A stretch of 64,000 nucleotides of DNA from Ectocarpus siliculosus (taxonomy: Eukaryota; Sar; Phaeophyceae; Ectocarpales; Ectocarpaceae). The position numbers and the translations under genes were made by a program. Of the stretch, positions 28,104 to 58,261 are shown piece after piece (position 1 is the stretch's first letter; each line of letters opens with the position of its first letter). Location: positions 2,850,797 to 2,914,796 of the forward strand of contig FN649746.1 of the NCBI GenBank assembly GCA_000310025.1, read 5' to 3'. Under the pieces are notes generated by a model. The model saw nothing but the letters and a program-made list of their open reading frames with translations. It ran no database searches and was not told the origin of the DNA.

Positions 28104-43178
<15,075 letters not shown>

Positions 43179-54698: not shown

Positions 54699-57600
54699 TC
54701 ATGTAACGCACGGGCAGCTGGGACGTTGTTGGCCCTGACACAGCGTGGATCTTCCTGAATCGTCCAACAACGCCTCCGCGTCCCGCAGCCCCCCCAATTT
54801 ACGAACACTCCCACCAAGCTCGTGCAGCGTATCGGCCGCCTGGGCATGATTTTGCCCAAGCCTGGCCTCCTCGATCAGCAATCTCTCCGCCTCTGCTAGC
54901 CGCCCCGCCTCTCGTACGCATATGCCCAACTGATACAGCGTGTTGGCATCCTCTGACTCCAGCGTTGCCTTCCGCACGCTCAGAGAGCGTCTCAATAATG
55001 TCTCCGCCTCTTCCAACCGACCTCCCTGTCGAAGGCATACGCCCAGCTCGTACAGCGTAGAGGCTACCTTTACATCTTCTCGGCCCAGCTTGGTTTCCCT
55101 GATCGCCAGGCAACGCCTCAACAACACCTCCGCTTCCCCCAATCGTTCTGCTTCACGAACGCATATGCCAAGCTCGCGCAGCGCAAACGCGACCCCAACA
55201 TCCTCAGGGCCCAGCTTGTTTTCCTTGATGGTGAGGCAGCGCCTCAAAAATTCCTCCGCTTGCTCCATCTGCCCCGACTCTCTAGCACACACACCGAGCT
55301 GTTGCAGTGTGGTGGCCACCTGCACATCCTCTGGTCCCAGCTTGGTCTCCTCGATCGCCAGGCAGCTCCTCAGCAATCCTTCCGCCTCGCCCCACCGTCC
55401 GGACTTTCGAACGCAGGCACCCAGTTCATACAACGTGCAGGCCACTTGCATATCCTCCTGCCCCAGCTTCTTTCTCCTTATTGTCAGGCAACGCCTCAGC
55501 AATCCCTCCGCCTCGTCCAGCCGACCTGCCTCTCTAGCAGACACACCGAGCTGACGAAGCGTATCAGCCACCTGGAGATGCTCCGGGCCCAGAATGGCTT
55601 CCTTGACATCCAGAGACCGCCTTAAAAGCGTTTCCGCTAGAGCTCTATCGCCGGGTCTGAACTCCAAAGCGGTTGCTGCAACAGAGGAAAGGCTGTCCGC
55701 GTCATCTAGATCCGCTTCCAGACCAGAACGGACTAGCGCGTTCATTCTAGCCAAGGCCAGAGGGAGCCCCTCGACCTCCTTCTCATGCCATTTCGCAGCC
55801 TCTTCGATATTTCCCAATCGCTCTGCCCATATAGCTAGGTTCCCGTACGTATTTAACACGAACGGGTGGTCTGCCCCAAGCTCCCTTTTCTCGACTTCGA
55901 GCAGTCGGCGCCACGAAGCGGATGCTCCCTCCAAATCCTCCTGTGCTTCTTGAAACCATCCCACAGCCTCCGCAGTTGTTCTGAGCAAGGCGTCCGATTC
56001 CAACATCATGCCCAACGCCTTTTCATATGGGCGTGTCTTGCCCCAGCCATCTCCACCCAAGCGTTCTATAGCCAGCCATAGACCCTTCAGAACGTAGCGG
56101 TCAGTGGAACGGAGGATATCTAGCGAGGAAAGGTACCTCGTCCACCTCTTCAAAGCAGGCCGGCGCACATGCCCACGGTCCAGAAGACACTCCCTCGCAA
56201 AGTCGGTGTGGGCATCATGCATTCGGTACGTCCCTTGTGCCGAGCGGATGATCGACCATCGCTCTAAAACGTCTACTACGCCCCCTGCAGATGCTTCGTC
56301 CTCCGTGCTGGGCGACCGATCGTAAAGCAGCACCGCGGCGTCTTTCAATGAGAAAGCATGGCCATCCGGCATCACCGCGAGCGACAGGTACAACCGTTGT
56401 ACACGCTCGTCGTCCGATCCAATGGCAAGATCCTCGAACCCACCCTGAAGAATGGCTTTCCGTCTTTTCGCTGGAATGTTTTCTGCGCTATCGTTGTCGG
56501 GATCATGTCCCACCTTCTCCATCTCAGTGCGAATCGTGCTGGCCGCATCCGACCAAGACGCTGGGTCATGCCTGCCGCGAACTGTACTCCATCGCCCCAC
56601 GAACGCGACGTCCATCGCCACGCGGCCGCACAACTTGATCAGGTCAACAGCATCGTCGGGCAAGCGGGATTCGCGGGGAAGTTCTGCCGCTCTCTTCAGC
56701 ACCGACTCCGCATCTGCCTGGGACAGCTCGTCAACTACCACAGCCTTGCCTCGTGAACGCTTCACGACCGCCTCATCACGGGTTGACAGGAGGACCCACA
56801 TGCCCGTTTCCACGAGTTTCGAGACAACGTCCTCCTCCCACACGTTGTCCGCCACTACGAGGCACTTCAATCTTCTGCCCTTGTGCCCTTCCTCGAGCCG
56901 TTGTTTGATGTAGGTCGCACTGTCTTCAGACGCGCTGGGTACACGGCCTACGCTACCACCAATCTCTTCATGAACCATGCGGGCCAGCTGCAGCATCAAG
57001 GACGGGAGGCGCTTCTTTGCTCCCTCGTTCACCGGCAACCACACGATACCGTCGGAGAAGGCCTCTCGCACCTCCGTACTCCTAACGATCTCGGCCGCGA
57101 CGGTGGTCTTGCCGGACCCGCTGTAGCCCGCTAATGCAACCACACACGCTCTGTCACTACCATTGAGCGCGTCGAGCACCGTCGCCATCGCGTGCCGACG
57201 TTCCACGTGCCAGCTCTTGCGTACCGGCGCCCCCATTGGCACCGCGGCTAGCTTGCCGAATGACCTTGGTAGACTCTCCAGCCTTTGGTCTATGCGATCC
57301 TGGAGATACACGAGATGCAAAGTGCGTGAGAGGTAGATACATGGAAACCCGCCTGCAATACCGCATCAAGTGTTCAAAGCGACGAAGAAATATCATTTGA
57401 ACGAAAAAGTCGTAGCTCTTAATACGTAATTCTTGATGGACAGTCAAAGAACGCAACGCCCTGATGCGGCGCATGCAATGTAATGATACGATACCATGTA
57501 TTATTTTATCATCGCAGCACATATTAGCATAATGTCGATCGAGATGTGTGATGTTCAGTGTGTTTCCCGTGGGTGCCCCGTTAAAAGGAGCGAAACGTTC

Positions 57601-58261
57601 GGCTGAAAAACAATCCCCCAGAATGGCAAGCAAAATACGCAAGTGGCACGAATTTCCGAACGCGAGGCCCTCCCGGCGAAAATTAAGAGAAAAGAGTGGC
57701 CAGCAGCTAAGAGAGCGGAGCGCTTCAAGGCGAATGCAGAGGAGAGTTCCGCTCGCAGGAGCGAACTGTTTGAAGACTCACCAGCGTTTTCTTCATGTCG
57801 TCCACTTTCCCTTCAAGAACCGCAATCCCGGCCAGTCCCAAGTCGGTCGTCAGGCGGTCGACGCTTGAGTTCAGACCGGCAATCTCACTCTTGTCGCTAA
57901 AGGCCTTTATCACTCTCGACACCTTGCCCCTCCGGCTACAACGCTCGGCAAAGTTCTTCGCCGCCTCGACGCAGTCCTTGAGGGGAGCCACATCCACCTC
58001 GCTTTCGATTAGCCTGCACTTCACGACAAAACATGCCGTAATGTAGGTGCACCTCTGTTCGAGTGCAGCCAGCTCCTCCCGATTGTTTTTCACCGTCTCG
58101 ACCGTCGTGCGGATGGCCTTGAGAGTTTTAAAAACCGGCTTGATGACAGGAAGCTCCTCACCCAAGTCCACCGCGCAAGACACTGCATCGGAGATGGTTG
58201 AACCGATCTCCAGCGCGAGTCTTGCGGCCTCTGCTGCAGAATCGCTGATATCGGCAACCAT
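54699..58261 (-). CDS. NB-ARC-TPR protein with N-terminal helical-bundle domain
   Basis: Two exons: 58261-57782 (160 codons from ATG, donor GTGAGT) and 57299-54699 (866 codons plus stop), both in phase 0, giving about 1026 aa. Residues 1-160 are helical and resemble the four-helix bundles of the HeLo/MLKL/RPW8 class (PVIKPVFKTLKAIRTTV, then KNNREELAALEQR). An NB-ARC NTPase follows: P-loop GYSGSGKTT near 218, Walker B CLVVADNVWE near 306, LLSTRD near 330, and an MHD motif (YRMHDAHTDFARE) near 520. From about 650 there are kinesin-light-chain-type TPRs, five to six near-perfect 42-residue units from 738 (ADTLRQLGVSAREAGRLDEA pattern) and decayed ones after. The first upstream in-frame codon used by naive callers is TTG. 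The architecture is that of NLR-like receptors; brown-algal NB-ARC-TPR genes are candidate immune receptors. Ligand and output are unknown. Confidence 0.93.
54760..55694 (-). repeat. 126 bp coding repeat array (TPR units)
   Basis: Units start at 55694, 55568, 55442, 55316, 55190, 55064 and about 54938 on the minus strand, exactly 126 bp apart. Each encodes a 42-residue TPR with the pattern TLxxLGxCxRExGRLxEAExLLRRCLxIRxxKLGPEDVQVA. Later units have in-frame deletions (about 9 bp and then about 18 bp), and the last unit changes frame. No introns separate the units. Confidence 0.92.

What the first reader, a model, noticed from the sequence alone, without database searches (positions are those of the whole stretch)
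54699..58261. Helical-bundle/NB-ARC/TPR receptor in a brown-algal-type genome
The sequence shows a two-exon gene with an N-terminal all-helical domain, a full NB-ARC (P-loop, Walker B, MHD) and a TPR array. NB-ARC-TPR genes are known from Ectocarpus as candidate pathogen receptors. The N-terminal exon looks like the HeLo/MLKL/RPW8 class, which in fungi, animals and plants acts on membranes or assembles into cell-death complexes. If that holds, this would be a complete sensor-switch-executioner NLR analogue that arose in stramenopiles independently of plants.
Basis: partly seen in the sequence, partly recalled or inferred. Interest (0 to 1): 0.8.

Follow-up and report, generated by a model that had tools for sequence, protein, structure and literature searches.

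The report
Candidate algal immune receptor gene
A gene, probably from a brown alga, encodes a protein built like the intracellular immune receptors of plants and animals: a helical head that seems related to the head of the cell-death protein MLKL, a nucleotide switch and a repeat arm; receptors of this layout are already known from brown algae, but the same genome also seems to hold kinases with a head of that type.

Summary
Window 58261-57782 and 57299-54699 (minus strand) form a two-exon, 1026-aa gene: an N-terminal helical exon, NB-ARC and kinesin-light-chain-like TPRs. Exon 1 belongs to the gene: homologous exons precede NB-ARC in 8 of 8 strong matches in this genome, with mostly conserved phase-0 splice sites and dN/dS below 0.5 in 28 of 28 pairs. 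The MLKL reading has sequence support: one paralogous exon passes the curated Pfam MLKL_N cut-off (28.6 against 27 bits), and 3 of the 10 MLKL_N hits listed for the 189-Mb genome are exons of this family. The window exon itself is below cut-off and not among those 10. No HeLo or RPW8 hit qualified. The fold could not be tested (structure prediction switched off). The architecture is not new: I recall that Teng et al. 2023 (Plant J; not held) reported an N-terminal four-helix bundle on brown-algal NB-ARC-TPR proteins. Not found described in the open-licence library (two searches) is that this genome also has MLKL_N exons in front of kinases with intact catalytic motifs. 'Complete sensor-switch-executioner' remains an untested, reasonable hypothesis.

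The parts
57782..58261 (-). Exon 1: N-terminal helical (MLKL_N-like) domain, 160 aa
   Evidence: same exon 5' of NB-ARC in 8 of 8 strong matches
58163..58249 (-). Residues 5-33: presumed amphipathic leading helix, N-terminal to the stretch that aligns with MLKL_N
   Evidence: best 18-residue hydrophobic moment 0.53 (residues 11-28) against shuffle 95th percentile 0.44; helix limits and role are inference
57830..58135 (-). Residues 43-144: stretch aligned to Pfam MLKL_N positions 4-111
   Evidence: E 0.027, 14.4 bits, below cut-off 27; homologous stretch of paralog L007 28.6 bits, above cut-off
57300..57781 (-). Phase-0 intron, 482 bp, GTGAGT...CAG
   Evidence: donor conserved in 7 of 8 paralogous genes, acceptor in 7 of 8
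54699..57299 (-). Exon 2: NB-ARC + TPR, 866 aa plus stop
56517..57188 (-). NB-ARC domain (PF00931, exon-2 residues 38-261); P-loop GYSGSGKTT, Walker B VVADN (N at the usual second acidic position)
   Evidence: nearest NB-ARC relatives in the PDB by phmmer are Apaf-1 chains
56208..56222 (-). MHD motif (MHDAH)
54810..55652 (-). TPR array, 42-aa units (5 found by a motif pattern; limits approximate)
   Evidence: nearest PDB relatives kinesin light chains

Best explanation
This is an NLR-type (STAND) receptor gene of the brown-algal NB-ARC-TPR kind. The TPR array is the sensing or binding arm, the NB-ARC is a nucleotide-controlled oligomerisation switch, and exon 1 is an MLKL-type helical bundle acting as the signalling or effector head. 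Most likely a ligand or a modified host protein on the TPRs releases the NB-ARC, the protein oligomerises, and the clustered heads with their amphipathic leading helix act on membranes or recruit further MLKL_N proteins (the genome holds MLKL_N-kinase genes) to start a defence response, possibly cell death. Shown here: gene structure on comparative evidence, identity of NB-ARC and TPR, coding status of exon 1, and similarity of the exon family to MLKL_N through one above-threshold member. Inferred: fold, oligomerisation, membrane action, immune role, organism.
For: Gene model and splice-site conservation. 8 of 8 strong exon-1 matches sit 5' of NB-ARC. Purifying selection on exon 1, 28 of 28 pairs below 0.5. 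MLKL_N: the genome search lists 10 hits at E<=10, 4 above the cut-off; three of the 10 and one of the 4 are exon 1 of this family (L007, L005, L001). hmmscan matched 6 of 13 members; individually L007 1.2e-6, L005 3.7e-4, L001 0.0025, L002 0.017, window 0.027. Control: MLKL_N rings in 1 of 14 control genomes, above cut-off in 0. NB-ARC and TPR. hhalign links the exon to the N-termini of C180 (98.6%) and class-2 NB-ARC genes (96.9%) and to three further exons (96.3%), against at most 9.4% in 240 column-shuffled and 4.2% in 6 reversed controls. Related heads are found in cell-death proteins: MLKL, HET-S and plant RNLs (passages of PMC9950082 and PMC10197012).
Against: The window exon alone scores below the MLKL_N cut-off and is not among the 10 hits of the genome search. 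No MLKL_N match at E<=1 in L003, L009, L011, L012, L013, L014 or at E<=0.5 in L008. Direct hhalign to the genome's own MLKL_N-kinase heads gives 2.5%, and to the L017/L019 heads 14.8%, barely above that group's best shuffle, 9.4%. Profile searches of PDB sequences gave MLKL only at E 1.4-1.5 (5 of 18 listed) and ZAR1 at 0.41 (1 of 13); designed helical proteins scored better in both. No structure model. No expression or function data. Residues 1-42 lie outside the MLKL_N match.
Confidence: 0.62

Rival explanations
1. The head is a homotypic signalling or dimerisation helical bundle (adaptor-type, as in Apaf-1-like receptors) that recruits a partner, such as an MLKL_N-kinase, and does not itself touch membranes.
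For: The NB-ARC is nearest to Apaf-1 in the PDB. The genome holds MLKL_N heads on kinases and homologous heads in exons where no NB-ARC was detected, which could be partners. The leading helix is amphipathic but only mildly hydrophobic (mean 0.19 on the Eisenberg scale); no transmembrane prediction was run.
Against: MLKL and HET-S, characterised members of the wider superfamily, act on membranes themselves (PMC10197012, passages).
Confidence: 0.3
2. A generic coiled-coil or helical bundle unrelated to MLKL; the Pfam match is a composition effect.
For: Window exon below cut-off and absent from the genome-wide list; PDB profile hits to designed helical proteins; little hhalign support against the kinase heads.
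Against: L007 exon above the curated cut-off, and 3 of the 10 listed genome hits in this exon family; matches fall in the same register (profile start 1-4, end 105-111 in the window exon, L002, L005 and L007; L001 is partial, 61-111); the helix-rich exon 2 gave no MLKL_N match among the 25 of 29 families shown.
Confidence: 0.15
3. A housekeeping STAND scaffold (for example in intracellular transport, given kinesin-light-chain-like TPRs) and not an immune receptor.
For: TPRs nearest to kinesin light chains; no expression data.
Against: Clustered, diverged copies (7 on contig C21, 6 of them within about 0.33 Mb), two of the 8 with broken second exons, a birth-and-death pattern typical of receptor families; brown-algal NB-ARC-TPR genes are regarded as candidate immune receptors (passages of PMC7317505 and PMC8307928).
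Confidence: 0.12

Closest known systems
[quoted passage not shown] 2012; Teng et al. 2023)
   Same: NB-ARC followed by a TPR array, clustered, multi-copy, with, as I recall from the Teng abstract, an N-terminal four-helix bundle
   Different: Nothing essential that I can show. In the C21 group the head is a separate first exon, while in the class-2 genes of this genome head and NB-ARC share one open frame. Neither paper was held; titles were seen in reference lists and the abstract is recalled.
MLKL four-helix bundle / plant MLKL
   Same: Sequence match to Pfam MLKL_N, above cut-off in one paralog; the genome also has MLKL_N + kinase genes
   Different: Here the head sits on an NB-ARC-TPR body instead of a kinase; it has about 40 extra N-terminal residues
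Plant RNL/CNL receptors (RPW8/CC head, NB-ARC, LRR)
   Same: Helical head + NB-ARC with P-loop and MHD; amphipathic leading helix
   Different: TPR in place of LRR; no RPW8 hit above cut-off in the genome search
Fungal HeLo/HELL-domain NLRs
   Same: Helical cell-death-type head on a STAND protein; TPR arms also occur in fungal NLRs (general knowledge)
   Different: No Pfam HeLo hit at E<=1 in the genome search; amyloid motifs were not looked for
Apaf-1
   Same: Nearest NB-ARC of solved structure (best E 1.2e-8)
   Different: CARD head and WD40 arm (general knowledge) instead of MLKL_N-like head and TPR

Membership tests
NLR / STAND NB-ARC proteins | NB-ARC domain with P-loop, Walker B and MHD | tested here: met
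   PF00931 58.1 bits; motifs at 57128, 56861, 56222. Walker B second acidic position is N
NLR / STAND NB-ARC proteins | C-terminal repeat arm and an N-terminal extra domain | tested here: met
   TPR_12 in 5 stretches; exon 1 conserved 5' of NB-ARC in 8 of 8 strong matches
NLR / STAND NB-ARC proteins | Ligand-induced oligomerisation | not testable with these tools
   needs protein work
Brown-algal NB-ARC-TPR receptors | NB-ARC fused to TPRs, multi-copy and clustered | tested here: met
Brown-algal NB-ARC-TPR receptors | Host is a brown alga | not tested
   the genome carries no name; inferred from architecture only
MLKL N-terminal domain (Pfam MLKL_N) | Score above the curated Pfam cut-off | tested here: inconclusive
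   window exon 14.4 bits, not met; paralogous exon L007 28.6 bits, met
MLKL N-terminal domain (Pfam MLKL_N) | Four-helix bundle fold | not testable with these tools
   Structure prediction switched off
MLKL proteins | Head followed by a (pseudo)kinase domain | tested here: not met
   this gene has NB-ARC-TPR instead; separate loci L015 and L016, and perhaps L019, have that layout
HeLo (PF14479) | Match to the HeLo profile | tested here: not met
   no hit at E<=1 in the genome search; none among hmmscan hits of exon 1
RPW8 (PF05659) | Match to the RPW8 profile | tested here: not met
   1 hit in the genome search, sub-threshold and elsewhere; none for exon 1; a sub-threshold one in L017

The most novel reading that the evidence does not exclude
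The genome carries an MLKL-type cell-death toolkit assembled outside plants, animals and fungi: one kind of head module, encoded as a first exon ending in a phase-0 intron, sits on NB-ARC-TPR receptors (sensor + switch), on kinases with intact catalytic motifs (MLKL/RIPK-like layout), and perhaps on proteins without either, so that receptor and kinase could signal through head-to-head assembly, a necroptosis-like pathway in a stramenopile. The N in Walker B of all 7 C21 receptors may make them slow-hydrolysing, one-shot switches.
Probability: 0.3. Interest if true: 0.78.

Novelty: new member of a known kind. Interest (0 to 1): 0.48.

Why it matters
Brown algae became multicellular independently of plants and animals, and how their recognition events lead to defence is described as virtually unknown (PMC7317505, passage). 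If the receptor heads really are MLKL-type bundles and MLKL-like kinases coexist with them, the idea that NLR-driven membrane-lytic cell death is an ancient eukaryotic toolkit becomes directly testable in a further complex multicellular lineage, by expressing single exons.

Tried and rejected
Profile searches of PDB sequences: no significant MLKL or ZAR1 hit, and no HET-S chain listed. Direct hhalign between this exon family and the genome's MLKL_N-kinase heads: 2.5%, not significant, so that link rests on the shared Pfam profile only. In one search I used 8 of the 11 class-2 N-termini held (L014, L024, L026 left out: partial, near-duplicate, broken) and left out the broken kinase head L033. 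Exon shuffling of the head in L002 (C476): its head is 47-56% identical to C21 heads, its NB-ARC only 45-48%, but AU tests reject neither history (p 0.28 and 0.069), so I do not claim it. RPW8 and HeLo filing: rejected. Literature: MLKL+Ectocarpus gave 1 paper and MLKL+stramenopile 4; judged from titles and abstract starts only, none is about algal MLKL. Limits: 8 of 10 searches used, open-licence library only, Teng 2023 and Zambounis 2012 not held.

Full report
What is there. Exon 2 carries NB-ARC (58.1 bits; cut-off 23.5) and a TPR array (TPR_12, 5 stretches), with P-loop, Walker B, LLSTRD, CGRVAMD and MHD motifs in order. By phmmer its TPRs are nearest to kinesin light chains and its NB-ARC to Apaf-1 among solved structures.

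Is exon 1 part of the gene? Yes, on comparative evidence. The window lies on contig C21 of a 189-Mb genome in 492 contigs. The exon-1 protein finds 22 matches at E<=1; 8 (itself and 7 others at 50-57% identity) are strong, and 8 of 8 lie 0.46-1.25 kb upstream of an NB-ARC hit on the same strand: 7 on C21, 1 on C476. The phase-0 GTGAG donor is at the homologous place in 7 of 8 (exception L001), the acceptor in 7 of 8 (exception L002); two more distant relatives, C180 (L008) and C16 (L010), also have a phase-0 GTGAG donor. Pairwise dN/dS of exon 1 is 0.16-0.47 in 28 of 28 pairs; dS is 1.0 or more in 25 of the 28 as printed, so the values are rough. Transcripts were not available.

What the head is. 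Of 13 domain sequences scanned, 6 match Pfam MLKL_N; the 13 other families listed match 1 member each. Individually: L007 28.6 bits, above the cut-off of 27, E 1.2e-6; L005 20.5 bits; L001 17.7; L002 15.1; the window exon 14.4, below cut-off; L003 none at E<=1. The genome search with MLKL_N lists 10 hits at E<=10, 4 above cut-off; 3 of the 10 and 1 of the 4 are exon 1 of this family, but the window's own exon is not among the 10 (such a search scores only candidates of a loose first look and can miss weak matches). The profile rings in 1 of 14 control genomes and passes its cut-off in 0. RPW8 gives one sub-threshold hit elsewhere and HeLo none at E<=1. Results against: no significant hit to MLKL chains in PDB sequence searches (E 1.4-1.5, 5 of 18 listed; no MLKL among the 13), and little or no hhalign match to the genome's MLKL_N-kinase heads (2.5%) or the L017/L019 heads (14.8%, best shuffle of that group 9.4%). 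A fold test was impossible. I therefore call the domain MLKL_N-like, with good but not final support.

How widely the head is used in this genome. hhalign joins the C21 head to the C180 head (98.6%; the C180 gene's NB-ARC is 43-48% identical to those of the C21 and C476 genes, though one search does not list it), to the N-termini of class-2 NB-ARC genes, in which head and NB-ARC share one open frame (96.9%; 8 of 11 sequences held were used), and to three exons, L009, L011 and L012 (96.3%), near which no NB-ARC was detected. That absence is weak, since one search also misses the C180 and C16 genes. Controls reach at most 9.4% in 240 column shuffles and 4.2% in 6 reversals. Separately, MLKL_N exons above cut-off at C10 and C29 (L015, L016) end in a phase-0 donor (AAG|GTGAGC), and an acceptor at the homologous place (TAG in L016, a weak AAG in L015) leads into a kinase domain with VAVK, HRDLK and DFG. 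phmmer places the L015 kinase with CTR1, TAK1, MLK and Raf kinases, the TKL group by general knowledge; no MLKL or RIPK chain is among the 26 listed at E<=1e-20. At C15 (L019) a sub-threshold MLKL_N exon (19.9 bits) precedes exons with HRDIK and DFG; that gene model was not worked out. A C25 copy (L033) has stops in the head. C14 (L018; 26.3 bits, 27.3) has the head followed by a glycine-rich hydrophobic tail; C485 (L017) a head upstream of cysteine-rich stretches resembling GRF zinc fingers (name recalled, not scanned); C24 (L037) a sub-threshold head that looks split over exons.

How it most likely works. TPRs sense, the NB-ARC switches and oligomerises, the head signals at membranes or by recruiting other MLKL_N proteins. 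Only the anatomy is shown; the rest is inference from MLKL, HET-S and plant RNLs, whose shared helical head and part in cell death are described in PMC9950082 and PMC10197012 (passages). The N-terminal 40 residues hold an amphipathic stretch: its moment exceeds the shuffle 95th percentile in 6 of 10 proteins tested, the window protein among them, ties in 3 and falls below in 1. In 7 of 7 C21 genes the Walker B reads ADN where C476, C180 and L034 read ADD; L010 and L028 also have N. Loss of the second acidic residue would be expected to slow hydrolysis (inference).

What is known. NB-ARC-TPR proteins as candidate receptors in brown algae are established (passages in PMC7317505 and PMC8307928). 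From memory, the abstract of Teng et al. 2023 (doi 10.1111/tpj.16131; title seen in reference lists; text not held) already reports an N-terminal four-helix bundle on these proteins. So the gene is a new member of a known kind. I found no paper on MLKL_N-kinases in brown algae in searches (MLKL+Ectocarpus: 1 paper; MLKL+stramenopile: 4 papers; judged from titles and abstract starts), which is weak evidence of absence from print.

Verdict. Observation right, coordinates right, the MLKL part of the interpretation supported by sequence through a paralog, the fold and the killing function untested, the independence claim not supported, the core architecture already published as far as I recall. 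The extra value lies in the coexistence of MLKL_N-like receptor heads and MLKL_N kinases in one genome.

Noticed in passing
L015:1393-2937 (C10:3221392-3222936), L016:1532-2920 (C29:552031-553419): MLKL_N exon above cut-off, joined by a presumed phase-0 intron to a kinase with intact VAVK/HRDLK/DFG: an MLKL-like layout in a probable brown-algal genome
   Followed up: partly
L019 (C15:3032500-3039500): A sub-threshold MLKL_N exon (19.9 bits) upstream of exons with HRDIK and DFG kinase motifs; gene model not worked out
   Followed up: no
L018:5167-6186 (C14): MLKL_N-type head followed by a glycine-rich hydrophobic, possibly membrane-inserting tail (27.3 bits; 26.3 bits)
   Followed up: no
L029, L030, L031, L032 (C9, C10, C16, C476): NB-ARC genes in which I saw no C21-type or class-2 head; L030, L031 and L032 have transmembrane-like hydrophobic segments before the NB-ARC (read by eye)
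   Followed up: no
L002 (C476:971000-975800): Head about as close to C21 heads as most of them are to each other, NB-ARC and TPR far more distant; possible exon shuffling, but AU tests are not decisive
   Followed up: yes
L004 and L005 (C21): Second exons broken by a stop or frame changes: birth-and-death pattern in the cluster
   Followed up: partly
C21 genes; window 56861: Walker B reads VVADN in 7 of 7 C21 genes in place of the usual DD
   Followed up: partly
window 30534-30929: ORF with an MCM OB domain match (PF17207, 1.4e-8), probably an exon of an MCM replication gene; 1 of 10 window ORFs scanned had a Pfam hit at E<=0.01
   Followed up: no
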